Assembly: GCA_017394375.1 (NCBI GenBank)
Contig: JAFPYV010000013.1
Location: 1 to 64,000 of the forward strand
Length of the DNA: 64,000 nt
Reading direction: 5' to 3'
Origin: a bacterium
GTDB lineage: Bacteria > Bacillota_I > Bacilli_A > Mycoplasmatales > Mycoplasmoidaceae
The position numbers were made by a program, and so were the translations under genes. The notes beneath the pieces were generated by a model, which did no database searches, was not told the origin of the DNA, and saw nothing but the letters and a program-made list of their open reading frames with translations. This document shows, one piece after another, positions 6,005-64,000 of the stretch; the stretch's first letter is position 1; each line of letters opens with the position of its first letter.

Positions 6005-6040
6005 GTTCATCATCCTCATTATTAATTATAAATTAACTAA

Positions 6041-9018: not shown

Positions 9019-9019
9019 T

Positions 9020-10243: not shown

Positions 10244-10279
10244 ATTAATCTCCAATATCTTAATAATTTTAGCATATTT

Positions 10280-10306
10280 TTAGCACTATAAACCTTTTAT
10301 TGCTAA
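10280..10306. promoter_or_regulatory. CIRCE operator (HrcA site) upstream of dnaJ
   Basis: TTAGCACTA-N9-TATTGCTAA matches the CIRCE consensus TTAGCACTC-N9-GAGTGCTAA at 15 of 18 arm positions with the exact 9-base spacer. It lies between divergent dnaJ (start 10243) and ruvA (start 10364). HrcA would repress dnaJ-grpE here. A second, better copy precedes clpB. Confidence 0.85.
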
Positions 10307-10363
10307 ATATTTAAATGGGAATTTTTTTATTTTTAACGATATTAGCAATAAAAGGAGAATTAC

Positions 10364-11056: not shown

Positions 11057-11994
11057 TGAATGAATTACGACCAAGTAATTTTAGGGAGTTTGTTGGACAA
11101 ACAAACTTGATAGAAATCTTGCAAGTATACTGCCAAGTATGTAAACAAGAGCACATTTGTTTTAAACACTGTCTATTTTATGGATTACCAGGAACTGGGA
11201 AAACTTCTTTAGCATACGTAATTGCAAATGAATTAAAAGTAAAAGTTCATTATCTAAACGCTAATAACTTGCATACACAAGCTGATTTATTATCATTTTT
11301 TAGTTTAATCAATGATAATGAAATTGTTTTTATTGATGAATTACATAGTTTGGATCCTAAAATTGTCGAATTTTTATATAGCATGATGGAAGATTATTTT
11401 ATTGATATTCCTATTGGCAAAGAATTCAATAAAAAAAGTACTCATTTAAAAATTCCAAGGTTTAGTTTAATAGCTGCAACTACTTCCATTGGCAGAATTC
11501 CTAAACCATTATTGGAACGTTTTCATTTGGTTTACAAATTGCAAGATTATACTGAAAATGAAATTAAAAAGATTATTAAGCAAGTAGGCAATTTAAATTT
11601 TAAAAAAGTTAATTTATTGACTGAAGAAGAAATCACTAGTTTAAGTGAACATTGTAAGAATAATCCCAGAATTGGGATTAATTTATTACATCAAGTAATT
11701 GATTTTAAGAAAATTAATCCTGCCATTAAAATTGAAGAAATCTGAAAGAAATTAAGAATCTTTTTATATGGGTTAACCATTAGTGATTTGGAATACTTGC
11801 AAACAATTAATAATTGCCAGCAGCAAGTATTAGGAATTAAAACTATTTGTCAAATAACTGGTTATGATTCATTCACAATTGAAAATTATATTGAACCATT
11901 TTTGTTTAAGTTAGAATTATTGACTAAAACTAGTAAAGGACGTGCATTAACAAAAAAAGGCAAAAGTCTACTTAATCAACTAAAATTAGTATAA
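11056..11994 (+). CDS. ruvB: RuvB, Holliday junction branch migration ATPase (312 aa)
   Basis: Hexameric AAA+ motor that drives branch migration with RuvA. Visible parts are the start RPSNFREFVGQ, Walker A YGLPGTGKTS (about 44-52), Walker B VFIDELHSL, sensor region SLIAATTSIGRIPKPLLERF, and a C-terminal winged helix ending in KGRALTKKGKSLLNQL. One in-frame TGA (Trp) sits before the winged helix. It overlaps ruvA by one base. Confidence 0.94.
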
Positions 11995-16997: not shown

Positions 16998-17385
16998 AGA
17001 TTATGTAGACTATAAGCCATGTTCTGTACCTTTTTAAAAGGCGTTGATCATTTATCTGTAATTGTTACATTACCCATTAACTTATTGTTATTATAAGTTA
17101 ACAATTCCCTTACCATAATTTAGGTTTCTTGCTTGTGGAGTTTACCAACGTTTCACTTTTTTTATTTCTAAAAAAACTCGTCTCTGTGGCACTTTATGAA
17201 TTTCATGCGTGGTAAACAGAGGATGTGTGTTTACTTTAGCACTTTATTCGTCGTCGTGACCTAATTAATCACGCTAGTCCTTGATTTCTTATAGACTACA
17301 CAATCATTTATAAGCGTTTCAGCTTATGCAAGCATGGACTTTCCTCTAAGGTTATGAACCTCAGCGATCAACCGTCTACGTAATT
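16998..17385 (-). ncRNA. rnpB: RNase P RNA
   Basis: Catalytic RNA that matures tRNA 5' ends. On the minus strand the conserved GAGGAAAGTCCATGC block (17336-17350) and the 3' block with ACAGAACATGGCTTATAG (17012-17029) are present. The terminal helix pairs GTAGAC (5' side, 17374-17379) with GTCTAC (3' side, 17005-17010). A TAAGAT -10-like element lies just upstream near 17386-17391. Ends are approximate. Confidence 0.93.
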
Positions 17386-17429
17386 ATCTTACATCATTTT
17401 TTATAAAAATGTATATTTTTATAATAAAA

Positions 17430-17461
17430 AAATATTCTCATTTTAACAAGTGAGAATATTT
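17430..17461 (-). terminator. terminator of the ATP synthase operon
   Basis: AAATATTCTCA pairs with TGAGAATATTT (11 bp), followed on the minus strand by a run of T. It lies 17 nt after the atpC stop and just upstream of rnpB. Confidence 0.8.
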
Positions 17462-17477
17462 CTTATATTTTATTGTT

Positions 17478-17930
17478 TTACGCTAAAGCCTTTTGGTTCT
17501 TAATATAGAAATTATCAATCGCAGTTAATTTATCTTTTTCGTTCTTTAAACTAACTTTTAAAGTATTCAATTTGTTTTGATTTTTCTCAGTTTTAATTTC
17601 TTTTTCAAGTTCGTTAATTTTATTAACAACATCTTGACGAATGACTTTATCATTAAATTCAAAGTAAGGAGTAAGAATCTTTAACTGTTCACCATCATTG
17701 TATAAAAAGCCTCCCGCTAAGACGGCAATTCTTTTCTTCCCACTTAAATCAGTAATTGCACATTGGCCAAGAGTAACTTCGGCCACCATTGGTAAGTGCT
17801 TACGCATGAATCCTTCAAAACCATCAACTTTGGTTTCAATGGTTGCAATGCGTACATAGTCACTGTATTTAATTCCATCCGTGGTAATGATTTTTAAGTA
17901 AAGGTTTTCTTTTGCTGTATCAACAGCCAT
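17478..17930 (-). CDS. atpC: ATP synthase epsilon subunit (150 aa)
   Basis: Central-stalk subunit that couples rotation and inhibits hydrolysis. The beta-barrel domain is seen (DYVRIATIETKVDGFEGFMRKHLPMVAEV and GKKRIAVLAGGFLYNDGEQLKIL). A C-terminal helical hairpin rich in Lys/Glu follows (about 100-145). Last gene of the operon, before the terminator at 17430-17461. Confidence 0.9.
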   Translation of the reverse strand: MAVDTAKENLYLKIITTDGIKYSDYVRIATIETKVDGFEGFMRKHLPMVAEVTLGQCAITDLSGKKRIAVLAGGFLYNDGEQLKILTPYFEFNDKVIRQDVVNKINELEKEIKTEKNQNKLNTLKVSLKNEKDKLTAIDNFYIKNQKALA

Positions 17931-17945
17931 GATTTAATCCTTTAA

Positions 17946-19615
<1,670 letters not shown>

Positions 19616-20471: not shown

Positions 20472-22031
20472 TTACATGCCTAATTCACGTACATCACCGT
20501 AATCACTAGCCTTATAATCTTTTAAACTGCTAATGAATTGGCGAGTATATTCTTTGAATTTTTCTTCAAACGCTTTTGTTAAAGCGTCATCAAATGCCTT
20601 CTTTTCTTCAAGTTGTTTACGCAAATCCGAAGTAGCAAAATAGTTAACTAAACCATTTTTATAATCAATTACTTTTTCTACTGGAATTCACTTGATGAAT
20701 TTCATTTTTACATTCAATAAAATAATTGCTTCATCAATTTGGGAATAAGGGTGGTTATTTGGTTGCCGTAGTACTTGCATAATCCGTTTACCTAATTCCA
20801 AAGTCCGTTTAGTTTCAGGATCTAGGTCACTACTAAATTGACTAAATGCTTCAAGTTCACGGTATTGGGCTAGTTGTAGTTTTAAACTACTTGCACCTTG
20901 TTTTACTGCTTTAATTTGAGCACTTCCCCCAACCCGAGAAACGCTAAATCCAGCATCAATTGCTGGACGTTGACCAGAGTTGAATAATTTAGTTTGAGTA
21001 AAAATTTGTCCATCCGTAATGGAAATAACATTGGTTGGAATATAAGCAGCAATATCACCCGCTTGAGTTTCAATAATTGGCAATGCAGTAATGCTCCCCC
21101 CACCATACTTCTTGTCTAACCGACATGCTCTTTCAAGCAATCGTGAGTGTAAGTAGAAGACATCACCAGGGTAAGCTTCCCGACCAGGTGGACGTCTTAA
21201 CAGTAATGAAATAGTGCGGTATGCAACCGCGTGCTTTGACAAGTCATCATAAATGATTAAAACATCCTTACCCTTACTTAATCAATATTCAGCAATGGTA
21301 ACCCCAGTATATGGTGCTAAGTATTTTAAGGCTGGTAAATCACTAGCACTAGCTGATACTACGCACGAATATTCCATTGCACCTGCATTCTTTAATTGTT
21401 CACAAACTTGCACAATAGAAGAATTTTTTTGTCCAATCGCAACATAAACACAATATACATCCTTACCTTTTTGGTTCAAGATGGTATCAATTGCGATCGA
21501 AGTTTTTCCGGTTTGTCTATCACCAATAATTAATTCCCGTTGGCCACGACCAATTGGAATCATGGCATCAATGGTTAAAATACCAGTGGCTAATGGAACA
21601 TCAACGCTCTTGCGAGTCATTACTCCTGGAGCGATTTTTTCAACTGGGCGGTATTCAGTAGCACTAATTGGACCTGCTCCATCAATTGGCATTCCAATTG
21701 CGTTTACCACTCTACCTAACATTGCATCACCAACTGCAGTTTCCATAACCCGTTTGGTGCGTTTTACGGTTTGGCCTTCGGTAATATCATTGTAAGGACC
21801 AAACAAAATAATTCCGACGAAATCAGCTTCCAGGTTCAAAATCATTCCGACTGTTCCGTTTTCGAAAATTACAAGTTCGTCTAGCATTGCATTATCAAGT
21901 CCGCTGGCATACGCAATTCCGTCACCGATACTAATTACTTTCCCATTTTCAGATGCTTGCACCTGCGTGGAAAAACTTTTAATTTGTTCTTTCAAAATTG
22001 ATGAGAACTGACTTAAATCAATTGCACCCAT
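20472..22031 (-). CDS. atpA: ATP synthase alpha subunit (519 aa)
   Basis: Non-catalytic nucleotide-binding F1 subunit. Walker A GDRQTGKT (170-177), the arginine-finger region [17 protein letters not shown], and [26 protein letters not shown] are visible. Two in-frame TGA codons are read as Trp. The length is normal, with no extension unlike atpD and atpF. Confidence 0.97.
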
Positions 22032-24092: not shown

Positions 24093-24479
24093 CTAAAATG
24101 CACCAGTAACAAAGATTAACAGAATTGAAATAATCAAAGCATAAATTGCTGATGATTCGGCAATCGCAGCCCCAATTAACATCATCATCCGAATCTTTGA
24201 TTCCATTTTAGGGTTGCGGGCAAGTCCTTCAACTGCTTCCCCAGCAGTATAACCTTGACCAATCCCAACCCCAGTCGCACCTAACATGGCACATCCTGCA
24301 CCAATACCAGCACCAAATCCTGGCGTAAATAAACTAGAGGAAGTGGTTGCAGCAGTAGTAGCCATGGTTGAACTAGTTCCTACTAGGGCAGAGTGAATCG
24401 CACTGTGGGCATCTGCTACTTGCGAAACCTTATCTGGTAAATCAGATAAATTTGTTAATAAATCGATAAATGTTGTCAT
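24093..24479 (-). CDS. atpE: ATP synthase c subunit, second copy (128 aa)
   Basis: Proteolipid ring subunit. Helix 1 GVGIGQGYTAGEAVEG, polar loop ARNPKME, and helix 2 IGAAIAESSAIYALII carry the ion-binding Glu. Q in helix 1 together with E-S-x-x-x-Y in helix 2 is the ligand set of Na+-binding rings. A 55-residue N-terminal extension precedes the hairpin. GAAAGG lies 6 nt upstream. A paralogue lies immediately upstream in the operon. Confidence 0.9.
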   Translation of the reverse strand: MTTFIDLLTNLSDLPDKVSQVADAHSAIHSALVGTSSTMATTAATTSSSLFTPGFGAGIGAGCAMLGATGVGIGQGYTAGEAVEGLARNPKMESKIRMMMLIGAAIAESSAIYALIISILLIFVTGAF

Positions 24480-24528
24480 GTCTATATCCTTTCAATTTGG
24501 TATCAAAAATAATTACAAATCAAACGGT

Positions 24529-24897
24529 CTATAGAGATGGAGCAACGAAAATTAACAAAATCGCAATAATTAGAGCGTAAATTGCTGATGATTCGGCAAT
24601 CGCAGCCCCAATTAACATCATTGCCCGAATCCGGGAGTATTCATCAGGGTTTTTAGCAACTGCTAGTGCTGCTTTACCCCCAACGTAACCTTGACCAAAA
24701 CCTACCCCTAATGCTCCGGTCATCGCTAATCCGGCACCGATATAACATCCAGCCCGGGCTGCTGCTTGATCAGCAGGATTTTTAGTCGTGGCAGCCAACA
24801 CCATTGTTTGAGCGTGGGTATGTACAGCAGGCATTGAAGAAGCCATTGCTGATGCATGTTGGTGTAGTTCGTGTAACGCTGAAAAATCAAATATCAT
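24529..24897 (-). CDS. atpE: ATP synthase c subunit, first copy (122 aa)
   Basis: Second paralogue of the ring subunit, upstream of the other by 49 nt and with its own ribosome site (AAGGAA). Helix 1 GVGFGQGYVGGKAALAV, loop AKNPDEY, and helix 2 IGAAIAESSAIYALIIA show the same Q and E-S-x-x-x-Y pattern. The N-terminal extension of about 48 residues is His/Met-rich and unlike that of the other copy. A block of 44 nt over helix 2 is identical in both genes (24142-24185 and 24578-24621). Confidence 0.9.
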   Translation of the reverse strand: MIFDFSALHELHQHASAMASSMPAVHTHAQTMVLAATTKNPADQAAARAGCYIGAGLAMTGALGVGFGQGYVGGKAALAVAKNPDEYSRIRAMMLIGAAIAESSAIYALIIAILLIFVAPSL

Positions 24898-29863: not shown

Positions 29864-30752
29864 TTTCACAAAAAAAGTTAAATATGAATTAATCATGAAA
29901 AAATATAACCAAGATGAACAACAATTCATCATATTTGGTTATTTTTTTCAATCACCCCATTTAAATCGCTTGAACTTTCATTTAAAACTTAATCTTATAA
30001 ACAAGTTTATTGTGCAATTATTAATCTCATGTTTTAAAACAATGAAAGTTAATGTAACACCTAAACAAATTAATTTAAGTTTTAGCAAAGAAAACTTATT
30101 AAATAATTTTGTTCAATTCCAAATAAATAATCTAACAAACTTTAATAGGAAAAATAAATTTCCTTGGTGAGCTTTTTTAATTGGTTGATTTTTAAGTAAA
30201 GGAAGTGTAAGTGACCTTCAAACTAAGTCATACCATTTGGAATTAAAACTCAATGATTTAATTTACAAGCAAGATGTAAGTAAATTATTACATTTTTTAA
30301 AATGTAACTTTAAATTTCTTGCTCGGAATAATTACGCAATTTTTTATTTAAAGAAACCTGAAGAAATTTCTGATTTTTTAAAGTTATTAAAAGCTGAAGA
30401 AGCAGTATTAACCTTTGAAAATAATTGAGCAGCTAAACAAAGTTTACATTTAATGCAACGCTGAAATAACCTTGATTTATTAAACGCAGTAAAGACCCAA
30501 AAATCAATTGATAAACAAATAGCAGTAATTAAATATTTAAAGAAAGCGGGATTATTTAACCAATTAAAAGCAAAAGAACAAATGATTTGTAATTATCGGT
30601 TAAAATACAAAGATAATGCTTTAAATGGATTAGCAATCCAAATTTGTCACGATGAACATAATCCTTCATATACATCTAAAAGTGATTTAGCTTATTTATT
30701 TAATAAGTTAACAAAGATTGCAATCGTCTATAAACAACACCATGAAAAATAA
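29841..30752 (+). CDS. whiA: WhiA-type DNA-binding protein (303 aa)
   Basis: LAGLIDADG-derived regulator. The mycoplasma member directly follows trxB, as here. The FLSKGSVSD...SYHLEL motif, FLKLLKAEEAVLTFEN, and NNLDLLNAVKTQKSIDKQI (degenerate NR-N-AN-K pattern) match WhiA. The C-terminal helix-turn-helix is present but divergent. Start ATG 29841 lies inside trxB; the stop overlaps the next gene by 11 nt, so three genes are coupled. Confidence 0.85.
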
Positions 30753-33279
30753 TTGATTAAAGAAAATATTTTATTGTCTTGGGAATGATATTCCTTGGTA
30801 TGAGTTAACCAATGATAAAAGTAATGAAAAGAAACAAATTAAATTAGAAAATAAAATTCTTAATTTAATGACCTCTAAAAATTTTAAAATTACTGATTCA
30901 AATTATGTGCAAGAAACATCCAGTCCAGTATTTAATTTACCAACGTTTATGCAAATAAACTGACCGAATGGAACAGACGCAACATACTTTAAATCTTATG
31001 AAGTTTTAAAGTATTATGAAGACGTAGGAATGATTAAATTTAAATTAACCCTTGCACATGATACTAGTCAGGAATATTTAATCAAAGGATTTAATAACTG
31101 AAATGATATCTTAATGCATTGCGAAAGCGATATTGAAGCCAAATTTAAATCGCAACCCGTAATGGATTATTTAAAATCAAAAAATTTTACTTGTTTTTTA
31201 GGGCAAGTAAATGACGTACATTTAGAAACTTTAATTAGTTCATTATATGAAAACCACTTTATCAAAGATAAATCAATTAAGTTAAACACTGTTGGAATTG
31301 ATTACCAAAATAATTGTTATAGTTTGCAAATCAATTGACTAGTTGATCCTAAATATCATTACTTGCTAAAAATTGAAAGTGCATTTGTTACTTATTTAAA
31401 GGAACAAATCAATTTACTGACCACATTTGTTACCACTAATGAAACTTTAATTAATAACATTAAAAAAATTACTCTAAGTAAAATCAGTGATCAAAAATAT
31501 TTGAATAATTTCTGAAAAACTGGATTAGAAGAATACATTAAAGAAAATCATTTTGACAAACTTGAATTAAACATTAGGGATATCAATGAAACTAACTGTT
31601 CAATAATGATTGATTTCTATGACCCTACTATCAAGAATGATGTAACTAATGTGTACGTCGTTGATGATTTAGTAAATGCAAAAGAAACTCGAACAAAAAT
31701 CATTAAAATCTTACATACTTATGAATTTAATGAAAAAATTCTTGAATTATATAATCATCAACAATTAACCAATGAAAATACGGTTAATTTATTAAAAAAA
31801 TTTGGCTTTGATAATAATTTTCAATTAAATTGAAAAGAACACAACCAATTACCACAATTGCTAGTAGAAATTAGTTCAACTAGTTTGTCTCAGTGCAGTG
31901 CTACAGGCTTTATTTCGGTTCCTAGTTTATTTGCAAAATTTGCTAATAACTATATTAGTACAATGCAATTTAGTGAAATTTTGTTTGATGATCCAAGTTT
32001 CCAAAAAATATTAATTGATAATTATTTTGATTATGCAAAGTTAAATGCTGATTGTTTTAATGATGTCATGGCACAATACGATGCGGTTTGAAAACAACAA
32101 GTATTAGCACACCCATTTAAAATTTTAGCTACAGCTAATCAAGTTGATCCCATTATTTATATTAGTAATGTAAATGGAATTTTAAATTCCCATGAAATGT
32201 ACAGTACTAATAAGCAAACAACCTTAAGCATGAATAAGTATTTAGATTTATTAGCAACTGATGATGAATTTATCAAGATGCTATATCAACAAACGTATGA
32301 TGAATTAACTAATAGTGATTTTGACCAAAAGTTAAAAGTATTTGCTGATAATTTAGTGATTAAACATAATCAATTAAATTTTGAAAATAGTAACTATCAT
32401 TTACATCTTGATTATGTTGCACCATTTCAAGTATTTAACATTATTGTAAGTAATAACACCCACAATGAAGTTAATAAACATTTTACCAACAAATATGCTA
32501 ACAACTATTTAAGTTTAAATTCCTTAGTTGGCAACCCAAGTTTTTTTAACAAGTTAATTGAATTAGCCCAACCATGATTTGATAACAAAAATCAATTAAT
32601 TGATAATGAAGTTATTAATAATTTAATTAGCTCCTATTTAGAAGGAATTTACTTTACTAATATTAGTTATAATAAACAATTTGAAATAGATGAAAAAACA
32701 AATCAAGAAATAATTGTTTTTAAAATTTTCTTTAAAGTGCTATTCCCAACTATTTCATTTAGAATTCCTAAAATTACTAAGCAAGTTGATCTTGCCGCTT
32801 TATCGAATAATTTCAGTGCCCAAGTTGCTAACTATTTAGCAATTCAAACTGATTATCCAAATGAATATAAAATAAGTGATTTAATTACTAAATTAAAGCA
32901 ACCAGAATTTAACCAACTTGATAAAGAAGACGGAATAATTACAATTTCCCAATGGAATAATAATGAAGACCCAATGATTTTATACACCATTACAATTCAA
33001 AGTCTTAACATTGAAATTTCTGACTACACCTTTAATTTAGCAATGATAAAAGATGCATGAACTAAAATTAATCATTTTAATGAAGAATTAGTTAACAAAA
33101 TTAAACAAACTTTACCTCCTAATCAATTAGTTAAATTTCGTCAAAACCAATCTTTATTTTCTGAAGGTTTGAATCTTACGAGCAAACCAAGTTGATGAAA
33201 AAATGACCGTTTAGGTTTTAAACTAAACAATCATTCATTAAATATTTATTATGGAAATTTATTAATTCAAACTTTCTAG
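30742..33279 (+). CDS. hypothetical protein of 845 residues coupled to whiA
   Basis: No family recognised. No signal peptide or membrane span is seen; the composition is Asn/Leu/Ile-rich with many TGA-Trp codons. Several segments show a similar rhythm of a helix followed by N-x-L-N/H strands: near residues 175-200 (LNTVGIDYQNNCYSLQINW), 275-295 (LNIRDINETNCSIMIDFYDP) and 545-570 (LNFENSNYHLHLDYV). This suggests divergent repeats of about 100-270 residues. The ATG overlaps the whiA stop by 11 nt. The TAG overlaps the stop of the convergent membrane protein gene. Possibly a large cytoplasmic structural or DNA-associated protein; function unknown. Confidence 0.75.
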
Positions 33280-34481
33280 TGAATTTTTTGGTGTTTTAAA
33301 TGAGCTTTTTCACATGCTTGTGCAATTGCCCATCAACAACAAAAGAAAATATAGTACACAATAATGCATCCAATATAAATTCCAAATTGAGCACCTGAAC
33401 CAGGAGTACAACTATAAAGATTATATTTACTAGTATCAGGGTCAAAGTTGCTAGAATTAATTGCATCAAAGATGTGAACAATTGTTGCGTGATTTAATGT
33501 GCTTATAGTATACATATGCACATTTTTATTTAAATTAGTTAAAGAACCATAAACACTAAATACATTTTGGGGAAAATAAACAAGGCTATTAGCAGTAATA
33601 GTGCGTATTGCACCATAACCAATTCCCATGTTATGGTAAATTTGTGCTAATTGGGCAGTAGTAGGCATGTGGGCTAATACTAATTGGCCATTCTTTAATG
33701 AAACAAATGCTTCATGGTCAACTGTGAATCATTTGCTAATCATTGCATTAGCAAATTCAGTACGTTGGGTGCCAGATAAACTGTTTAACATTTGGTTAGA
33801 AACGCTAATTAAATTGTGCCCATGACCATTAAAAGTAATAAAACTGCTTACCCCTCCAACCACGTTGTTAGTTACTGGAACATTTAAATAATTAGAAGCT
33901 TGCACTTTATTTCAATACCGAACTGCAGCACTAATAAATGGCAAAGCAGTAAAATAAACCATTTGATATGCAATATAAATCATTCCTCAGCCCGTTACTT
34001 GAAATTTAGGAATTCCATGGGAGGTACGTCCTAAAATAAAACCAGTAAAAACAAAATCAACAATTGGACTGAACATATGATATCATACGGTACTAGTTCA
34101 ACTAGCAGGACTCATAAATTCAGCGTGAATAACATCTGATCTTAATAATAAACAATTAAATCCTAAAAAAACAAACAGGATGTAAGAATCAGCACAAATT
34201 AAAAAATAATTTTTATTAAAAATTTTTCGATTATGCAAGAATGCATATAATAGTAAAAATGTTCAAAAAATTAAATTTCCTTGAATAGTTAAATATTGAA
34301 GGGAATTAAATCAAATCCCATTGTGAATATTGTAAAGGGTGAAAATCACCACTGGGAAAGTTAAAAGACAGCAACAAAAAGCTAAAATTCGATCTCATTG
34401 CTTAAACGCTTGTCAGTATGGATGGTTTACAAAAGCAAACCGATTTTTTGGTTGCGTCTGATGATGAGTTAATATTTTCAT
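33276..34481 (-). CDS. polytopic membrane protein, possibly Pr6Pr-like (401 aa)
   Basis: Six or more hydrophobic spans. The pattern NSLQYLTIQGNLIFWTFLLL followed later by STVWYHMFSPIVDFVFTG resembles the Pr6Pr family found in mollicutes (FAR-17a/AIG1-like fold). Between the fifth and last span lies an outside loop of about 150 residues (about 225-370) with GHGHNLISVSNQML and NHATIVHIFDAI, not typical of the family. TGA is used for Trp many times. It shares its stop region with the convergent 845-residue gene (4 nt overlap). Confidence 0.7.
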
Positions 34482-35501: not shown

Positions 35502-36677
35502 TTATCAAATTCAGTTATGTCAAGCATCTTTTAAATATGGGAAAATTTCAAATAAGTGACTGTTTTGACATGAACTAAATAATTGGTATAGACCAAAGAA
35601 GATAATCACGATTAGTAGAGAATCAAGTCGATCAAGAATTCCTCCGTGTCCTGGTAATCAATTACTAAAATCTTTAATCTTAATACCACGTTTAAATCAA
35701 CTGAATAATAAATCACCACAAATAGCTAAAATACCAGTAGCAATTCCTAAAAAGAATAGTACTAAGTATACTACTCATTTATGAGCGTATGCGGTTTGTG
35801 ATACATCAGTCGCACCAAATAAGTTACCAGAGATGTTATTGTTAATGATGGTAACTCCATAATTGTTTACTTCTTTGTTACTATCTAGATAATAGAATGC
35901 CATGATGATTAACATAATCACAAAGCAAGCACATACTCCAGTAGCAGCTCCTTCTCATGTCTTGTTTGGACTAATCTTTTCACACATTTTGTGTTTACCG
36001 TATCAAGAACCACCGAAAAATGCAAATGTGTCGTTAAAGAATACGGGTACAAAAATGATAAAAATTGCAGATCAAGTGTGAAGAAGAATAATCATATTAA
36101 ACAATAAGAAAGCATAAACCACTAAAATGTAAACAATGTAATGGGTTGCTAATTGCATGCCAGTTAAGTTTCTTAGGTTAACAGCTTGACCAATATAAAG
36201 CAAGAAAGCACCAAACAATAAGCCCCCTAATTCACATCAACCAATATCATGGGTAATATCATACATGGTCATGTTGCTGTAGTGCATGTAATTACAATAG
36301 AAAATAATTATTGGTGCATATGCTACACACACGGATGTTACCATTCATAAGGCAAATGCTCATTGTTGTTTTCAGCCTTTATAGAACAAACGGTATAGTT
36401 CGTAAAGAGCGGCAAACATGATTAGCATTCCAATTGTAATAAATGTTCAGCCAAAACCACGTTGCACGTATCCATTGTAGTAATTAAAACCAAAGATATT
36501 AATACTACTTGCACCAAAGAAAAAGAACAAGCTTAACAAGCCAACTAAGATAATGGCCGTGGCAATTCGCTTAATTATATTAATGCGAAATTCCCGTTTT
36601 TTGTCCTCAACTAACTCTTCTTGGTGTTGATGCTTTAAATGTTTAAAATTAAAGCGTTGCCTATTTTTTAGAGGCAT
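35502..36677 (-). CDS. cdsA: CDP-diacylglycerol synthase (391 aa)
   Basis: Makes CDP-diacylglycerol for phospholipid synthesis in the membrane. The signatures SPNKTWEGAATG and KDFSNWLPGHGGILDRLDSL are intact; about eight spans. A basic N-terminal tail of about 35 residues precedes the first span. ATG 36677 is preferred over 36683 because GGGAGG is then 8 nt away. Overlaps the uppS end by 17 nt. The last codons use TGA three times before TAA. Confidence 0.94.
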
Positions 36678-37365
36678 TACCATATCCTCCCTTACGAATA
36701 TCGCGTGTTCTAAATTCGGCTAAATTTTTATAAAAAATATCTAAGGTATAATCAGGAAATTTAGTTGGTTCAAAAATAAATTCAGCATAAGCCATTTGGT
36801 AAAGTAAAAAATTGCTAATTCGTTGTTCACCACTTGTACGAATCATTAAATCAACTGCAGGCAAATTCTTAGTTAATAAATATGAACTAAATTCATCCAT
36901 GCTTACTTCATGATTTAATTTTTGAATTTGGTTGCATGCTTGAACAATGTCTTGCATTCCCCCATAATTAAAGACAAAGTTAATCACAATTCCAGTATGA
37001 TTTTTAGTTTGATTAACTAATGATTGCAAGTCATCAATAATATGCGATGGTAATTTATCTTGAAATCCAGTTCAAAAAAATTTAAGATTGCTATCAATAA
37101 ATTCTTGTCTGTGATATTTCACATAATCGTCCAAATACTTAAACAAGAATTCAATTTCTTTGGTATCTCGTTTTCAATTTTCTAATGAAAATAAATAAAA
37201 ACTTAACACCCCAATTTCAGAATTATTTTTCAATCCCGTAATTAATTCTTGTAACCGTTTTACTCCAGCTTGATGGCCAAAAGTCCGAGGCATATTTCGG
37301 GCTTTAGCTCATCGACCGTTGCCATCGACAATAAACGCGATATGTAATTTATGATTTAATTCCAT
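36661..37365 (-). CDS. uppS: undecaprenyl (polyprenyl) diphosphate synthase (234 aa)
   Basis: cis-Prenyltransferase. FIVDGNGRWAKARN (about 11-24), SFYLFSLENW, NFVFNYGG, and DLMIRTSGEQRISNFLLYQ are the conserved blocks. Mollicutes without a cell wall keep it, perhaps for lipid carriers. The substrate would come from the MEP genes represented here by ispF and ispG. The ATG shares one base with the frr stop. Confidence 0.94.
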
Positions 37366-40690: not shown

Positions 40691-40981
40691 TTAAAATCCG
40701 CTTTTATTTTGTAAATTTTTGTGCTTATTTTGCTTAATTATTGGTGAAAAAATAATAGCAAAACCTAAATAAGCAAGTAAACTAATTAAACAAAGCAAAT
40801 TATTACAAATAAATAAGATAAATGCTCAATTATCTCACCATTTATCATGGTGTGTTAATAAGGTACTTAAAGTATTAAGAAAACTAGCATCAAAAAGCAA
40901 AATTGACACCGTAATTAATAACGGAATTAAAAATAAAGCAAATAATACTCTTTTAATTATTTTTAATTTGGATATCTTCAT
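40691..40981 (-). CDS. small two-span membrane protein (96 aa)
   Basis: MKISKLKIIKR is a basic start. Spans follow at about 11-30 and 57-80, with a polar loop holding two TGA-Trp codons (DKWWDNWAF), and then a basic tail. The family is not recognised. It is divergent from the secretion-like genes with only 24 bp between start codons, so it may be part of that system. Confidence 0.6.
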
Positions 40982-41005
40982 GTTTCTTTCGATTTAATTA
41001 ATGTT

Positions 41006-41326
41006 ATGAAATTAAATAATTTATTACTAACGTTAATTCCCAACTTAAGTACAAACGAAGCAAATATGATTTGTACCATCATTAATACCATTTATGGAAT
41101 TTGCATTGGCTTAATGATTATTTCAGTTATTTACTATACGGGAATGTTATTTTGAAAAATTCATCATGCCCAAGGTGATGAAGAAATTAAATATCTTAAA
41201 AAAATGTACCTCAAACGCATAATAGCGTTTGGATGCTTCTTATTGTTGTTTGTAATTGTGGGAATTGTTCTTGGAGTTTTAGGACCATTAATTAAATCGG
41301 ATACAAATGCCATTGGAGCCAATTAA
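41006..41326 (+). CDS. two-span membrane protein, VirB2/TrbC-like by topology and position (106 aa)
   Basis: Spans at about 30-50 (GICIGLMIISVIYYTGM) and about 76-97 (FGCFLLLFVIVGIVLGV) are joined by a basic cytoplasmic loop of about 25 residues. The N-terminus carries a mildly hydrophobic stretch before the first span. It lies 1 nt before a VirB6-like gene and upstream of a VirB4-like ATPase, the usual place of the pilin-like or accessory small subunit. Sequence alone does not prove the assignment. Confidence 0.6.
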
Positions 41327-41327
41327 A

Positions 41328-43151
41328 ATGTTGTTAGCGTTATTAGCCAACAATTCTTTAATTTGGCATGTAGCAGGATACATAATCTACGAAATTATTT
41401 TTATTCCAATTTTGTACATTGTGCAATATTTATATTGAATCTTTGTCGCTATTATTACTAGTAATTGCGGATCGACTTTATTTGCCATCCAAATTACCAA
41501 TAGTGGCATTATCAATAACTTTACTACTTCTCCATTATTTCTTATTTATTTAAGTTGTTTCAGTATTAGTTTAATTTTGTTTTTATTTGTTTTACTTTAT
41601 AACATTATCAAAACATATTTAAATAACGAATTGCATCTTTACTTTAAACATACGTTTTATTGACTAATTATTACAATCATGCTTTATCCATTAATTCCAA
41701 TTGCTTTTTGCATCTTATTATTGCTAATTAATATTGCTTTTAATGCCTTAGGATTTAGCAATAATACTAGTTACATAACCGGTTCAACAATTGGCAATTA
41801 TGAGGCTAATTATGATTTATATAAAACTAAAATCTTGGCTAATTTAAATAATGAACAGGTGAACAAATTATTATTTTCGTTAAATCTAACAAAAATTAAT
41901 AGTAATAGTTATTATGCAACTAGTTTAATTGATAACATGAATTTATACCAAAATTTTGTTGTTAATAACCAAATTATTTTTAGCAAGATTAGTAATTTAC
42001 TTTATAACCTAAAAATCAATCAAGCGAATTTAAACGCTAGAAATCTGTTAAGTAATGATTTAGTAAAACTTAATAATCTAAACAGCTGGTTAATTAACAT
42101 CAACAATGACATTAAAAATCTTAATTTGAAATCATTAGTAAAACTTAAAAGTTTAATTGATCAACAACAAGACTATTTCAATGGAACATTAATTAACCAA
42201 TTGCTTGATAGTTTACCAAATTCATTAGTTAATTTGCTACCTCATTTAGGACACTTATATCAATTCAATTTAATTTGGGATTTAGAAAATATCACTGGTA
42301 ATAATTCAAAAATTATTGATTGGACTCCCAACTTTTGAAAATTAAATTGAAATGTAATTGTTGCGGTTATTTTTGCAATTGCTGTTTTAGTGGTGTTATT
42401 TTTATATGCAATTTTAACTATTCGGAAAATTGTTGAATTAATCATTCTATTTCTTATTAGTCCCATTGTATTTATTACAAATGTTGATGAAAAAAGTTAC
42501 TACTTTAAAAAATGATTACATGCAATTTTCATTAAATGTTTAGCCTTAATTTTAATTGCGTTAATTTTTCAAACTTGCATGGTACTATATCCAAAAATTG
42601 CTCAAGCAATTAATTTTAAACTAAATAAAGGCAACATTAATTGTCTGATTGCTGATGTAGTAGTAGGATTAGCCATTTTACTAGCGTGTTTTTTTAGCAT
42701 TAATACGATTCTTTCAATCTTTGATGCAAGAGAAGGATTAATGGAAATGTTTGCTGATTTATTTAGTTTACAAGCAATTGGTAGAAGCGTTCCATTCTTC
42801 AAAAGAATCTTTAATCACAAAAGTACAGGTTTTTTTGCAAATAAGGATCATAATCCTAATTACCCTGCTGACCAACCAAATGGAACAAAAGATGTAAGTA
42901 TGGAAGATATCTTATTTCAACGAGTGCCAATTCAAACTACGGGCTTAGAACACTTCTTAGCTAGCAATAAATTCCATCATTCACTAAATACTGCTAATAC
43001 GAAAATTCAATCAGTTTTATTTGGTAAACCAGGAAAATGGTTCGCAAAACATGAAAACAAATGAATTAATAATTTCTTAAATAAACACTTTAAGAAGTTT
43101 CATATGGAAGATCAAAAATGGAAAAAGGAACGAACCGAAGGTCCATTTTAA
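41328..43151 (+). CDS. VirB6/TrbL-like polytopic membrane protein (607 aa)
   Basis: About seven spans. Three lie within residues 15-142, then a soluble, probably outside loop of about 190 residues (about 143-333) with LNLTKINSNSYYATSL. Four lie within about 340-463, including VELIILFLISPIVFITNVDE and KKWLHAIFIKC. The latter match the conserved centre of VirB6/TrbL channel proteins (a hydrophobic span ending in SP, then a Trp-containing amphipathic step). A basic cytoplasmic tail of about 140 residues follows (ending KKERTEGPF). It overlaps the VirB4-like gene by 34 nt. Confidence 0.72.
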
Positions 43152-45487
43152 AACCTTTAGTTTTAACATACGAAGTAATTAATAAAAATTTAATTTTTAA
43201 TTTAACTTATTGGGAATTACTAATTTGCTTTCTATTATTGCTAACAATTGTGTGCTTAGATGCTTTTAGCAATTATGTGGTTTTGTTTAAGATTATTTTT
43301 AGTTGCATTTGGTTAAGTTATATCTTAAGTATTATTATCAAAATTCATCACCAAAACATTTATCAATATTTAATTAAAATCTTAATCTTTAATTATGAAA
43401 AAAATCAACATTTAAAAAAAGCAAAAAGTTTGAACATCCTTATTAACAATGAGAATGTAATTACTTACTTAAATAAAAAATATTTTGTGAAGCAGTTGAT
43501 TGCGACCAAGTTGTATAGCAATTTAAATGAGCAATGAGAGCAACTAAGCACCAACGCAAATATAAGTAATAATCTAATCATTTTAGCAATTAGCACCAAT
43601 GATTTAATGCAAGATTATTTAACGAAATTAGATGGTGTTCAAGTTAATGAAGGATTAACTAATTATTGAACTAATCATAAGACAGATGTTGATTTCATTA
43701 ATGATACAAGTAGTAAGAAACAATTTTTTGTACTTTTTCAACAAGAAACCGACTTAACTTGCTTAAATTCATTAAGTTGAATTAAGTTAAATGACCCAAC
43801 TAGTATCCAACTAAAATTAATTCAAACTAAATTTGATTTATGACAAAAAAGTAATAAATATGAAAGTAAATATTTTGTTCATGATAATTTATATTATTGC
43901 CTAATGAAATTAAATAATTTGAAGATTAATCAAACATTAGGCTGATTATGAGCATTATTAAATCTTAATCTTGATTGTGAATGTTTAGTTTTTATTAATA
44001 AATTAAAAAAAGAAACTGCGATTGAAAGATTAAATAAATTAAATCCTAGTCCTATTATCACGAACAAAAAACAAAAGGAAATTGGCAAAGACCAAAGCAA
44101 TTTAATTCATTTGTACAAAAATGAAATTGCTTTTGACCATGATGATTTAGTAGGATTTAGTTTTTATTATCTCTTGCATGCAACTGATAGCAAGCAACTA
44201 ACGAGATTAGCTAGTGAATTAAAAGCATGGTGCTTAAACATTAATATTCAGTTGGAATTAGTAAAATGGAATTATTTATCAATTCTAGATTGAATGAACA
44301 ACCAAGATAGTTTATTAATAACTAGCATTCATTTAAAAATTGGATTAATGACTATAACTTTAAATTATCATGATCCATCAGGGATTTACTTAGGAAATGA
44401 TAAAAATAATTTACCGTTTGTTTTTAATCAATTTAGTTACTTAAATGAATTAGGTATTGCAAGTAATGGGATTAGTTTGATTTTGGGAAAAAGTGGAGCA
44501 GGAAAAAGTATCCTATTAAAGAAAATAATCTATTTATCTTTAATTTTAATGCATCAACAAATCATTATTTTTGATGTTGAAGATGAGTATAAATTATTAA
44601 TTAGGTATTTTCCTAATTGTTTATTAATTAATAGCATTCCCTTAAGCATTGATCCATTTCAAATTAAATTTACTAATCAAGATGAAAAATTATTATTTTT
44701 ACAAACATTTTTCTTGCAATTTAATAGTAAACTTGATCTAATTAATGCTTTAATCGATTACTTTAACTTAAATACTCAACCAACTTTTTGAAAATTTTTA
44801 ACTTATTTGAAGCAAACTAGTCCGCTTAATTATGCTTACTTAAAATTCCTTGATACTGCAATTTATCAAAATTGATTTAATACTCAAATTGATTTAACAA
44901 ATTATCAATTAATCATCATTAACTTTAAACCAATTTTTGATAAAGAATTAATCACGAGCAACAATTTAATTAATGTGACATTAATTTTAATCTTTACTTA
45001 CATTAGCATGTATGTTTTTAGTAATCATTCAAAATTAATTCATTTAGTAATTGATGAAGCTCATAAATTTATTAATTTAAAAAACGAAGCAATTAACAAT
45101 ATTTGATATAGTTTTATTAAGAAAACTAGAAAATACCAAACGTGTTTAACATTTTGCACCCAAAATTTTAATGATTTATTTAACCATAATTTTGCAAACA
45201 AAATTTTAGGAAATATTCAATACTTATTCATTGGCCAAGTTAACGATATTGATTTAAATGATTTAGTAAATTACTTTAATCTAAATCAAAGTGAACAAGA
45301 AGAATTTAAACGCACTGTTTTATCTTTAAACAATAAAGAATTTTTATTTTGCAACAGTAAGCAGTCATTCAATATATTTACCAATTATATTGATCCAAAA
45401 ATTTTAAAGCAATATTATTTAACTAAAAATAATAATGAAGAAGTAACTTCTAACCAAAAAGAGAATGAAAAAAGTAAGACCGCTTAA
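43118..45487 (+). CDS. VirB4/TraE-type secretion ATPase with N-terminal PrgI-like membrane part (789 aa)
   Basis: Residues about 29-80 form a two-span segment (YWELLICFLLLLTIV, IIFSCIWLSYILSII) like PrgI, which in Gram-positive systems is a separate small protein before VirB4. The C-terminal half is a RecA-like motor: Walker A LILGKSGAGKS (about 457-464), FDVEDEYKLLIRYF after the first strand, Walker B HLVIDEAHKF (about 643-650), and KKTRKYQTCLTFCTQNFNDL with the sensor Gln. This is the pattern of VirB4 ATPases that power type IV secretion. Many TGA-Trp codons show long residence in this code. It ends in a terminator shared with nusG. Confidence 0.82.
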
Positions 45488-45495
45488 GTCTTACT
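45470..45495. terminator. bidirectional terminator
   Basis: AAAGTAAGAC pairs with GTCTTACTTT around a short loop that contains the stop codon of the VirB4-like gene. T-runs lie on both strands. Also serves nusG, whose stop is at 45517. Confidence 0.8.
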
Positions 45496-45516
45496 TTTAT
45501 TTTCATTATTAAATTA

Positions 45517-46642: not shown

Positions 46643-46789
46643 TTAGCGAGTTTCCTTATGCAAAGTAACTGCATTACATTTTTTGCAATATTTATTCAAA
46701 CTTAATGCAGTAGTACTTGCTTTATTTTTTTTAGTTGTATAATTTCTGGTTGCACATTGGGTGCAAACCAAAACTACTTTAATTTGCAT
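46643..46789 (-). CDS. rpmG: ribosomal protein L33, second copy (48 aa)
   Basis: MQIKVVLVCTQCATRNYTT and KYCKKCNAVTLHKETR show both CxxC pairs. It is in the conserved rpmG-secE-nusG order. The paralogue at 15106-15267 also binds zinc, so this is not the zinc-free alternative pair known from Bacillus. Confidence 0.92.
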   Translation of the reverse strand: MQIKVVLVCTQCATRNYTTKKNKASTTALSLNKYCKKCNAVTLHKETR

Positions 46790-46817: not shown

Positions 46818-47447
46818 CTATTTTTTATTTACTTTTAATCAGGTTTGAAATTGACTACGCATTCTACTAATTAAATAAGACCAGTGTTTGCTAACAGTTT
46901 TCTTACTTACTTTTAAAATGGTAGCAATATCATCAAGATTGTAGTATTTTAGTTTGTAATATAAGATTTTTTTATTGAGATTATTATTTTTAATATTGTG
47001 ATAGAATCATTGAATAAAGCGAATTTGTTCGTATTTATCTGTTTCAGTTAATTGCAAATCAGTTCAATTTTCTTCGCTATATTGATTATAAAAATCACAA
47101 ATAAAAGAATCTAATTCATTTTCATGAAAAGCAATTTTTAAAATTTTCTTCTTATTAGTATTGTATGCTCGATAAGCATCAATAATTTTTCCTTTGGCAA
47201 CAATATAAAAATGCTTTTCAAAAGGATATTGATTTTGAACTTTATGATAGGTTTTGTAAGCATTAATAAATGCTTGATCTAAAATCGCAGTTAAATCATC
47301 AATATCCATGATGTATTGAAGGTTGCGAAAATAGAAATATTTAATAATGGTGTTGCGCACTTTAGGAAAGTGCTTTTGATATAAATCTAAGATTGTATTT
47401 TCTTGATTTAATTCTTTAAAATTTCGTATTGTCTTGTTCCCGATCAT
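46818..47447 (-). CDS. SigH/MG428-type alternative sigma factor (209 aa)
   Basis: Region 2-like helices (DIDDLTAILDQAFINAYKTY and GKIIDAYRAYN) and a C-terminal region 4 helix-turn-helix (YYNLDDIATILKVSKKTVSKHWSYL) are visible. The order ligA-cysS-rlmB-(this)-rpmG-secE-nusG mirrors cysS-rlmB-sigH-rpmG-secE-nusG of Bacillus, so it is the positional match of SigH. In M. genitalium the related MG428 activates recombination genes. It overlaps rlmB by 32 nt. Confidence 0.8.
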
Positions 47448-55512: not shown

Positions 55513-56079
55513 TTATTTTTTATGGTATTTATCTTTTAAAACACCAACGCAATTTAAATTGCGATATTTGTTTTGGTAATCAAGACCATAACCAACAAGG
55601 AAAACGTTTTGCACGTCAAGACAAGTGTGAATCGTATAATTTTTAATGTAATCTAAACGGGTGTTTTTTTGGTTAAATAAGAACAAAAATTTAATTTCTT
55701 TTGGTTCATATTGCATGATTTCATCATAAACTAGCTTAGTAGTTAAACCAGTGCTAATAATGTCATCAATTACAAGCACTGATTTATTCTTAATTAGCTT
55801 TTTAGTGTTTTCAGCTAAATCAAGATTTAATTGAGGACTGTGAGCACGTTCTTCTTGCCCTTCAAAGGAAGCAAACCGCATAAAATCCGTAATTAATGAA
55901 AATTTTAATTGGGTCAAAATTTGGCCATAAAAAGCAATACAACCATCCAAAATACCAATGGTAACGATTGGTGAGCGACTACCTTTAAATTCAGCATTTG
56001 CTCACTTCGCCCCTTCTTTAATAGCATTCTTAATATCACTATTAGTGTAAATTACATCTTGTAAATACTTATTCTTCAT
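55513..56079 (-). CDS. hpt: hypoxanthine-guanine phosphoribosyltransferase (188 aa)
   Basis: Purine salvage enzyme. The PRPP loop SVLVIDDIISTGLTTKLV (about 113-130) is intact, and SPIVTIGILDGCIAFYGQIL is the N-terminal loop. FLVGYGLDYQNKYRNLNCVGVL is the typical HPRT end. Overlaps the ispF end by 11 nt. Confidence 0.93.
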
Positions 56080-56596
56080 TGTTTTCTTCTCCTGAATAAA
56101 TTAATAAAATTGTAACATAACATGACACTAATGAGGTAGTAGGGTCATTATGAAATAAATGATGTTCAGCCCTCGTTGCATGCATACTAATGTCACTTGT
56201 ATGCACTAAATGGCATAAATTTGCCATGATTTGTTTTTTAAGCGGCATTAACATCACTACGTCACTCTCAAATACAATCGAAAGATTGTTAATGATATAC
56301 CTCATGTCATGCATTTCTTTTAAAGCATAATCTAAAATTAGTTTGGAATTAATTCCCTTAATTTTAGTGTCTGTATCTTTAAAGTATGTGCCAATATCAT
56401 CCTTTCCAATCGCGTTTAAAATGCTGTTGGCAATTGCATGCAAAATAAGATCACCATCCGAATGAGCGTCTACATAATAAGGTAAATTAATTAAGGTTGC
56501 TCCCAAAATCAATGGTTTTGAATCCAACTTAACGTCATTATTTTTTAGTAAATAATGATGGTCAATTGCATTTCCAATACGATATTTAAGTTTCAT
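56069..56596 (-). CDS. ispF: 2-C-methyl-D-erythritol 2,4-cyclodiphosphate synthase (175 aa)
   Basis: MEP-pathway enzyme that forms the cyclic diphosphate which IspG then opens. Zinc ligands: D and H in GNAIDHHYL and H in DAHSDGDLILHAIANSIL. GKDDIGTYFKDTD is the conserved CMP-binding part. IspG is also in the window. The start codon lies 9 nt from a TAAAAT -10 element, implying a leaderless mRNA; no Shine-Dalgarno. Confidence 0.9.
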   Translation of the reverse strand: MKLKYRIGNAIDHHYLLKNNDVKLDSKPLILGATLINLPYYVDAHSDGDLILHAIANSILNAIGKDDIGTYFKDTDTKIKGINSKLILDYALKEMHDMRYIINNLSIVFESDVVMLMPLKKQIMANLCHLVHTSDISMHATRAEHHLFHNDPTTSLVSCYVTILLIYSGEENNEE

Positions 56597-63010: not shown

Positions 63011-64000
63011 TTATTTTTTATTTGCTAAATAATTAGCGTATGCTTGATCAATTAATTTTTTAAGTTCGGGAACTAAATCTTTTTCGTCACAATTCTTATA
63101 AATTTTACCTTTAACAAAAATTAAACCTTTTCCAGCACCCCCAGCAATCCCAATGTCAGCTTCTTTTCCTTCACCAATTCCATTTACAACACACCCTAAA
63201 ATTGCAACTTTTAAAGGAAACTTCAAGTGTTTGGTGTAATCTTCAATTTCTTTTACAACTTCTCATAAGTTGTAATTTAATCTTCCACACGTAGGACACG
63301 AAATAACATTGACTTGGTTAATATCAACACCAGTTGCTAACAATAACGCTTTGGCAGTTTGCACTTCTTTTACTGGATCATCAGTTAATGAAATACGAAT
63401 GGTATCACCAATTCCTTTAATTAATAAACTTGATAACCCAACACAACTTTTAACAACCCCACTAATTAAAGTCCCAGCTTCTGTAACTCCTAAATGCAAT
63501 GGATAAGGAAACATTTTAGCTGCTTGTTCATAAAGTTTAATGGTTCATAATGGATTTGTTGCTTTTAAAGAAATGACAATATCATGAAAATCATATTTTT
63601 CAAATACTTTTACAGCCCGGTCGCATGCTTCTAGCATCCCTTTAATAGTTACTCCATGATATTTAGTAACTAAATCTAATGGAACTGAACCACTATTAAC
63701 TCCAATCCGAATTGCAATCTTTTTTTCTTTAGCTTTATCAATAATTTGCTTAAATTGCTTTTCATCAGTAATGTTACCCGGATTAATTCGAATTTTCGCA
63801 ATTCCCGTATCCATTACTTTTAAAGCAAATAAATAACTAAAGTGAATATCAGCAATAATTGGTAAGGGGGAAATTTTATTTAAGGTTTTTAAAGCTTGAA
63901 TATCTTGTTCATCAAATACCGCAACTCGCACTAATTCGCATCCAGCTTCAGCCAATTCATTAATTTGTTTTAAGGTTGCATCAATGTCATGAGTTTTAGT
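63011..64000 (-). CDS. ispG: 4-hydroxy-3-methylbut-2-enyl diphosphate synthase, 5' end outside the window
   Basis: Converts the IspF product in the MEP pathway with a [4Fe-4S] cluster. Present are TKTHDIDATLKQINE, AGCELVRVAV, IADIHFSYLFALKVM, INPGNI, and the cluster motifs SCPTCGRLNYNL and GCVVNGIGEGKEADIG (usually GCVVNGPGE). About 20 N-terminal codons are missing beyond 64000. Two in-frame TGA codons are read as Trp. Confidence 0.94.

What the first reader, a model, noticed from the sequence alone, without database searches (positions are those of the whole stretch)
40691..45487. Orphan type IV secretion-like core: VirB2-like, VirB6-like and PrgI-VirB4-like genes in a housekeeping region
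A VirB4-type ATPase with complete Walker motifs follows a polytopic VirB6/TrbL-like protein and a small two-span protein, all overlapping or 1 nt apart. No relaxase, coupling protein, integrase or direct repeats are seen, and the set sits between rpsB and nusG with base and codon use like its neighbours. The PrgI-like part is fused to the ATPase. This looks like a domesticated machine rather than a mobile element. It could export proteins, take up DNA, or act in surface adhesion.
Basis: partly seen in the sequence, partly recalled or inferred. Interest (0 to 1): 0.75.

Follow-up and report, generated by a model that had tools for sequence, protein, structure and literature searches.

The report
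Chromosomal DNA-transfer pump core in mollicute
A bacterium of the wall-less mycoplasma group keeps, among its everyday genes, a stripped-down three-gene core of a DNA-transfer machine otherwise known from mobile elements of mycoplasmas, and close relatives keep at least its two larger genes; it looks like a tamed machine, but what it moves is not known.

Summary
In a code-4 mollicute contig (LigA: nearest named kin Malacoplasma iowae, 45%), three genes in one direction between rpsB and nusG encode a two-span pilin-like protein, a polytopic VirB6/TrbL-like protein and a VirB4 ATPase. Their best NCBIfam matches are Mbov_0395, Mbov_0396 and Mbov_0397, channel genes of mycoplasma integrative conjugative elements (ICEs), in the order CDS15-16-17. 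All three score below the curated cut-offs, so this is a divergent branch. Five further VirB4 clusters (73-76% identical) and three VirB6 clusters (86-87%) show retention under strong constraint. No coupling protein, relaxase or integrase appeared among 54 of 117 window ORFs scanned, but the rest of the genome is not held, so 'orphan' is unproven genome-wide. The fused N-terminal spans are shared with the mycoplasma ICE ATPase and are not peculiar to this locus. Best reading: an ICE-type T4SS core, now vertically inherited, most likely used for DNA transfer or uptake. Precedents: archaeal Ced/Ted and the mostly relaxase-free chromosomal T4SS of Patescibacteria. Verdict: new variant of a known kind. 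Direction, substrate and synteny in relatives are untested.

The parts
41006..41326 (+). small two-span protein, VirB2/pilin-like (Mbov_0395-like, ICE CDS15 position)
   Evidence: 106 aa, two hydrophobic spans (19-44, 66-100) joined by a charged loop that is basic near the second span; NF045849 E 1.7e-4, 21.2 bits against cut-off 40
41328..43151 (+). polytopic VirB6/TrbL-like membrane protein (Mbov_0396-like, ICE CDS16 position) with a soluble insert of about 190 residues (146-335)
   Evidence: NF045889 E 1.4e-15, 57.6 bits against cut-off 70; NF045848 E 1.2e-14, 54.3 bits against cut-off 90; hydropathy; relatives at 86-87% and 45%
42348..42695 (+). TrbL/VirB6 profile match inside the VirB6-like gene
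   Evidence: PF04610 E 0.0014, 18.9 bits against cut-off 25.9, fragment scanned alone
43118..45487 (+). VirB4-type ATPase (Mbov_0397-like, ICE CDS17 position)
   Evidence: NF045975 E 2.5e-43, 147.9 bits against cut-off 590; TIGR00929 E 7.1e-13; AAA_10 E 6.6e-10, 39 bits, over its cut-off 27.5; solved VirB4 4ag5 E 4.9e-5
43175..43483 (+). N-terminal membrane part of the ATPase, shared with the mycoplasma ICE VirB4 profile
   Evidence: residues 20-122 to profile positions 13-121, E 3.4e-4; SCO6880 family E 0.004
44486..44509 (+). Walker A (GKSGAGKS)
   Evidence: the same in all seven aligned sequences apart from one A/T position
45044..45064 (+). Walker B (LVIDEAH)
   Evidence: the same in all seven aligned sequences
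45470..45498 (.). terminator-like hairpin with T-rich tails on both strands, closing the trio and the convergent nusG unit; a consensus match, function not shown
   Evidence: found on both strands; six terminator-like sites in the region against 1.0 (sd 1.1) in shuffles
40691..40981 (-). divergent 96-aa two-span protein, 24 bp from the trio; membership unproven
   Evidence: only weak AmaP-like match E 0.0075

Best explanation
The trio is the inner channel core of a type IV secretion system of the same stock as mycoplasma integrative conjugative elements, without the element's coupling protein and transposase at this place, and now kept on the chromosome as an ordinary inherited gene set. Shown: gene identities at superfamily level, gene order, intact motifs, strong sequence constraint across a small clade. 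Inferred: the VirB6-like protein forms the membrane pore, the VirB4 motor docks under it through its own N-terminal membrane spans (which would stand in for a separate VirB3/PrgI), and the small protein assembles into a lipid-bound pilus or pore collar. Inferred with less confidence: the machine moves DNA between cells or into the cell, as the similarly composed Ced/Ted sets do or are thought to do in archaea; with a single membrane and no wall (inferred from kinship, not tested) no VirB1 or VirB7-B10 parts would be needed.
For: Profile matches to three consecutive ICE genes in the same order; ICE sizes CDS15 95-121 aa, CDS16 357-400 aa, CDS17 927-937 aa in three ICEs (PMC6813540 passages); disrupting CDS15, CDS16 or CDS17 abrogated or strongly affected ICEA transfer (PMC6030558 passages). 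Retention: five other VirB4 clusters of 783-790 aa at 73-76% and three VirB6 clusters at 86-87%, plus one at 45%, against 65-70% for the three nearest full-length LigA clusters after the 95% one, so the two larger genes seem at least as constrained as a housekeeping gene. Within VirB4 (window against P0002-P0006) the motor blocks 641-720 are 97-98% and the first 40 residues 94% conserved. No mobile-element gene among 54 of 117 ORFs scanned except an IS30 transposase 33 kb away. Codon use within the range of neighbours. Ced/Ted composition VirB2+VirB6+VirB4 (PMC9905601 sections 6 and 11); Patescibacteria chromosomal T4SS, mostly without relaxase (PMC12102498 abstract and passages).
Against: All three proteins score below the curated cut-offs of the ICE families. 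The rest of the genome is not held, so a VirD4, a relaxase or a whole ICE could be present elsewhere. Synteny in relatives was not seen, and relatives of the small gene were not sought. Species of the VirB4, VirB6 and LigA clusters could not be matched one to one, so the rate comparison is loose. An imperfect inverted pair brackets the trio together with nusG-secE; ICEA is flanked by inverted repeats, but this pair lies within other genes and is no better than shuffles reach. No competence or recombination gene lies in the operon, and no sigma-H-like promoter was found upstream (23 matches in the window against 21 expected, none near 41006). AlphaFold models were too poor to use (mean pLDDT 47.7 and 31.5).
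Confidence: 0.55

Rival explanations
1. A surface pilus or protein exporter: the core assembles filaments for adhesion to host cells or other microbes, or exports proteins, with no DNA substrate.
For: VirB2, VirB6 and VirB4 without VirD4 fits a pilus builder (established knowledge of T4SS). In one Patescibacterium T4SS genes are reported essential for epibiotic growth while the distant coupling-protein gene was not (PMC12102498 passages). The VirB6-like protein carries a soluble insert of about 190 residues (146-335), 76-79% conserved in the four 40-residue blocks 161-320 among the window and three relatives, for which the 357-400-aa CDS16 proteins have little room; it could contact a partner.
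Against: Best matches by profile are DNA-transfer genes; no effector, adhesin or lipoprotein gene was recognised beside the trio.
Confidence: 0.25
2. A dispersed conjugation system: coupling protein, relaxase and transfer origin lie elsewhere in the genome or on a plasmid, and the chromosomal channel serves them in trans.
For: In Patescibacteria only 148 of 5,713 VirD4-type genes lie near virB4 (PMC12102498 passages). T4SS genes are plasmid-borne in Spiroplasma citri, S. kunkelii and one S. ixodetis strain, though not on plasmid-like scaffolds of two others (PMC8025503 passages).
Against: Housekeeping flanks and retention across several clusters are unusual for a plasmid helper; nothing recognised in the 64 kb window supports it.
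Confidence: 0.15
3. A decaying remnant of a mycoplasma ICE.
For: Two M. hominis isolates hold three ICE backbone genes at different loci, read as vestigial remnants (PMC6813540 passages).
Against: All three frames intact, motifs complete, and five other full-length VirB4 clusters at 73-76%: a remnant would not be expected to stay intact over such divergence.
Confidence: 0.05

Closest known systems
Channel module CDS15-CDS16-CDS17 (Mbov_0395-0397) of mycoplasma integrative conjugative elements (ICEA, ICEB, ICEHo)
   Same: Gene order, two-span small protein, polytopic VirB6-like protein, VirB4 ATPase with a matching N-terminal part.
   Different: No CDS5/VirD4 or CDS22 transposase recognised nearby, and no match to other ICE families among the ORFs scanned; VirB6-like protein larger (607 against 357-400 aa), VirB4 shorter (789 against 927-937 aa); all below curated family cut-offs; housekeeping flanks.
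Ced and Ted systems of Crenarchaeota
   Same: Chromosomal VirB2-like + VirB6-like + VirB4-like set without a known relaxase in a single-membrane cell (PMC9905601 sections 6 and 11).
   Different: Archaeal; no sequence comparison was made here; import in Saccharolobus also needs CedD, CedE and Ups pili (PMC11868833 passages); DNA import is shown for Ced and only inferred here.
Chromosomal T4SS of Patescibacteria
   Same: Monoderm-type VirB4 with VirB6 and VirB2-like proteins, relaxase mostly absent, reduced genomes (PMC12102498 abstract and passages).
   Different: Has TrsD and a separate VirB3/PrgI; no VirB3-VirB4 fusions found there; different lineage.
Clostridia MAG locus L001 (VirB4 of 918 aa)
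   Same: VirB4 homologue, 33% over query residues 418-540; the 553-aa gene just upstream matches the VirB6 alignment weakly (hhalign probability 55, E 1.2e-4).
   Different: A VirD4/TraG coupling-protein gene lies about 6 kb downstream; relaxase not tested there.

Membership tests
VirB4 / TraE T4SS ATPases | VirB4 profile match with Walker A and B | tested here: met
   TIGR00929 E 7.1e-13, NF045975 E 2.5e-43; motifs. NCBIfam scores are under the curated whole-protein cut-offs, so membership is at superfamily level
VirB6 / TrbL channel proteins | polytopic protein with TrbL/VirB6 or ICE CDS16 profile match | tested here: met
   NF045889 E 1.4e-15, PF04610 E 0.0014 on the C-terminal part; both under cut-off; spans by hydropathy
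VirB2 pilins | two hydrophobic helices with a basic loop and pilin profile match | tested here: inconclusive
   architecture fits; NF045849 'pilin-like' E 1.7e-4 under cut-off; no PDB pilin match. A review describes CDS13 and CDS15 products as VirB3-like instead (PMC12857230 passages)
Mycoplasma ICE (MICE) | VirD4 homologue CDS5 in the element | tested here: not met
   none among 54 of 117 window ORFs scanned, i.e. not at this locus; the rest of the genome is not held
Mycoplasma ICE (MICE) | DDE transposase CDS22 and flanking inverted repeats | tested here: not met
   only an IS30 transposase at 7157-8128, 33 kb away; one imperfect bracketing inverted pair of a quality that shuffles also reach
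Mycoplasma ICE (MICE) | CDS15-16-17 channel order | tested here: met
Ced/Ted-type domesticated DNA importer | chromosomal VirB2+VirB6+VirB4 without relaxase, inherited in a clade | tested here: inconclusive
   composition and retention of the two larger genes fit; relaxase absence tested in part of the window only; locus in relatives not seen
Ced/Ted-type domesticated DNA importer | import of DNA | not testable with these tools
   needs an experiment

The most novel reading that the evidence does not exclude
A whole clade of uncultured mollicutes has turned the channel of a mycoplasma ICE into a resident cellular DNA-exchange machine, a bacterial counterpart of the archaeal Ced/Ted importers that needs only three proteins because the cell has one membrane and no wall.
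Probability: 0.22. Interest if true: 0.85.

Novelty: new variant of a known kind. Interest (0 to 1): 0.55.

Why it matters
If true it would be among the smallest bacterial T4SS kept by vertical inheritance, and a further case beside archaea and Patescibacteria of a conjugation channel tamed by cells. Bacteria with one membrane and no wall offer the simplest setting in which to ask what a VirB2-VirB6-VirB4 core can do alone. It bears on how mycoplasmas exchange chromosomal DNA, where ICE-linked chromosomal transfer is called unconventional and still to be deciphered (PMC6030558 passages).

Tried and rejected
AlphaFold models of the VirB6-like and VirB4-like proteins were too poor (alignments of 6 and 7 sequences), so no fold search was run. 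A sigma-H type promoter, suggested by the sigma-factor-like gene at 46818-47447, was sought and not found near the trio. Mobile relatives were sought in viral contigs with two alignments (113 stretches matched a pattern each time, none confirmed) and in plasmids by tblastn (no match at E 1e-5). The genome-contig scan used two peptide patterns, one ending in Trp, which a TGA codon could hide, and of 167 pattern matches confirmed two, both Clostridia; so absence from named genomes is weak evidence. The protein searches scored only the 7993 to 8000 candidates sharing most words. A search of 398 genomes of the phylum of a Clostridia genome found one weak VirB6 match (E 2.4e-4); a LigA probe of the same 398 gave 42% at best in the listed matches, and no genome there is under 1.1 Mb, so that draw probably holds no close kin and says nothing about mollicutes. 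PDB searches gave 4ag5/4ag6 as the only convincing match for VirB4, nothing usable for VirB6 or the small protein (a receptor match at E 0.005 looks like hydrophobic chance). Rows left out before comparing identities: fragments P0070 (345 aa) and P0076 (381 aa), and P0001, P0066 and P0071 in the conservation blocks. Of the 59 more distant VirB4 rows, I aligned 15. Literature: searches (20 of 51 papers listed; 20 of 23; 15 of 227; 8 of 8) were aimed at such a set in mollicutes; titles and abstract starts listed no report of it. (12 of 22 listed) brought the Patescibacteria and Saccharolobus Ced papers. One further paper (PMC12175501) held none of the terms asked. Only open-licence papers were searched.
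Full report
What the sequence is. The large frames of the window read open with TGA as tryptophan. Its genes are those of a mollicute: an ATP synthase cluster with an MG406-like gene, rpsB-tsf-pyrH-frr-uppS-cdsA, nusG-secE, cysS, ligA, ftsH, alaS and others (pyrH by position within an amino-acid-kinase match). Among the 120 of 3547 LigA matches listed, the closest are unnamed clusters (95%, 70%, 69%, 65-66%, then 50-54%); the nearest named ones are Malacoplasma iowae (45%), Mycoplasmoidaceae MAGs (44%) and Ureaplasma (44%). So the host is an uncultured lineage near the Mycoplasmoidaceae. No whole genome is held for it. That it lacks a wall is inferred from kinship.

The trio. Three genes run in one direction from 41006 to 45487, starting 24 bp from a divergent 96-aa frame and ending in a hairpin that looks like a terminator on both strands. 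The first stop and second start are 1 nt apart; the second and third genes overlap by 34 nt. NCBIfam names all three after consecutive genes of the M. bovis ICE: pilin-like Mbov_0395 (E 1.7e-4), membrane protein Mbov_0396 (E 1.4e-15) and VirB4 ATPase Mbov_0397 (E 2.5e-43); none reaches its curated cut-off. Further support comes from Pfam AAA_10, TIGR00929 VirB4_CagE, TrbL/VirB6 on the C-terminal spans scanned alone (E 0.0014) and the solved VirB4 4ag5. Disrupting CDS15, CDS16 or CDS17 abrogated or strongly affected ICEA transfer (PMC6030558 passages). A review treats CDS17 as VirB4 and CDS16 as likely VirB6-like, though it calls CDS13 and CDS15 VirB3-like (PMC12857230 passages).

The 'fusion'. 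The first 77 residues of the ATPase hold its N-terminal hydrophobic spans. This part aligns with positions 13-121 of the mycoplasma ICE VirB4 profile (E 3.4e-4) and weakly with SCO6880 proteins (E 0.004), while Pfam gives no PrgI match. The spans therefore seem inherited with the family.

Retention. The protein search returned one cluster at 99% (taken as the same species) and five more VirB4 clusters of 783-790 aa at 73-76%; for VirB6, one at 98%, three at 86-87%, a fragment, and one at 45%. After a 95% cluster, the three nearest full-length LigA clusters are at 65-70%. Clusters could not be paired by species, so this is a loose comparison, but it suggests that these genes change no faster than a housekeeping enzyme. 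Conservation within VirB4 peaks in the motor (97-98% in residues 641-720) and at the first 40 residues (94%), the start of which overlaps the end of the VirB6 gene. The VirB6-like protein has a soluble insert of about 190 residues (146-335) between its span groups, 76-79% conserved in the four blocks 161-320 (numbering from the earlier ATG; window and three relatives), for which the 357-400-aa CDS16 proteins have little room. Relatives of the small gene were not sought.

What is missing. Of 117 frames of 70 aa or more I scanned 54 against Pfam, NCBIfam or both; among the unscanned, 20472-22031, 24093-24506 and 24529-24897 look like genes (ATP synthase region), and most others overlap scanned genes. 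None of the 54 was recognised as a coupling protein, relaxase, integrase or transglycosylase (the VirB4 itself shows a sub-threshold TraG-D_C match, E 0.065); an IS30 transposase lies at 7157-8128. Repeats: no direct pair around the trio; one imperfect inverted pair brackets trio, nusG and secE. A control found 3 such pairs in the region against a mean of 0.6 and at most 2 in 30 shuffles, but single pairs as good or better in 20 of the 30, so I give it little weight. Codon use and GC are within the range of the genes compared, with VirB4 near the low end of GC (0.232) and the small gene on the low side in codon fit (0.203). This supports residence but says nothing on the rest of the genome.

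How it may work. VirB2, VirB6 and VirB4 are the parts that Ced and Ted share (PMC9905601 sections 6 and 11). [quoted passage not shown] Since then a chromosomal, mostly relaxase-free T4SS with VirB4, VirB6 and VirB2-like proteins has been described across Patescibacteria, with import of DNA or other macromolecules suggested (PMC12102498 abstract and passages). In the present set the ATPase carries its own membrane spans, which could replace a separate VirB3 as anchor to the pore; [quoted passage not shown] I put DNA movement ahead of a pilus or protein exporter because the best profile matches are DNA-transfer genes, but direction and substrate are open.

A side lead. A sigma-factor-like gene sits 1.3 kb beyond the trio, in the order cysS-rlmB-sigma-secE-nusG (that this is the Bacillus order, and that an L33 gene lies between, are from recall and from reading a frame). 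In M. genitalium, sigma-20 and MG428 are described as regulators of recA, ruvA and ruvB (review PMC9262362 passages). A sigma-H type promoter search found nothing near the trio, so this stays a lead.

Verdict. A real, divergent and conserved T4SS core of mycoplasma-ICE type in a housekeeping place; most likely domesticated; function inferred. New variant of a known kind.

Noticed in passing
window 2105-6019 (-), with 213-2120 (-): A 1304-aa helicase matches the defence protein model MkoA (222 bits) in PADLOC and anti-phage helicases in NCBIfam below cut-off; the 635-aa gene overlapping its end has no match in Pfam, NCBIfam or PADLOC and might be its partner.
   Followed up: partly
window 46818-47447 (-): A sigma-70-like factor (TIGR02937 E 9e-11, 41.6 bits against cut-off 42.9) between rlmB and secE, 1.3 kb from the trio.
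   Followed up: partly
window 56069-56596 (-) and 63011-64000 (-): IspF (below cut-off) and IspG of the MEP isoprenoid pathway, and an undecaprenyl diphosphate synthase at 36661-37365, in a code-4 mollicute.
   Followed up: no
window 30718-33279 (+) and 33276-34481 (-): Two large frames (853 and 401 aa) with no Pfam or NCBIfam match; the 401-aa one has hydrophobic spans.
   Followed up: no
L001:692-19372: A Clostridia MAG locus carries a VirB4 of 918 aa at 8588-11344, a 553-aa gene upstream, a VirD4/TraG gene at 17324-19372 and a Cas9-like gene at 692-4072. Many VirB4 rows of similar length appeared (P0007-P0057); the 15 aligned are 77-99% identical to the first; their kinship to L001 was not tested.
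   Followed up: partly
window 40691-40981 (-): A 96-aa two-span protein diverges from the trio by 24 bp; weak AmaP-like match only; it may or may not belong.
   Followed up: partly
window 40929-40956 and 46702-46729: An imperfect inverted pair (28 nt, 82%) bracketing the trio with nusG and secE; single pairs of this quality also arise in shuffles.
   Followed up: yes
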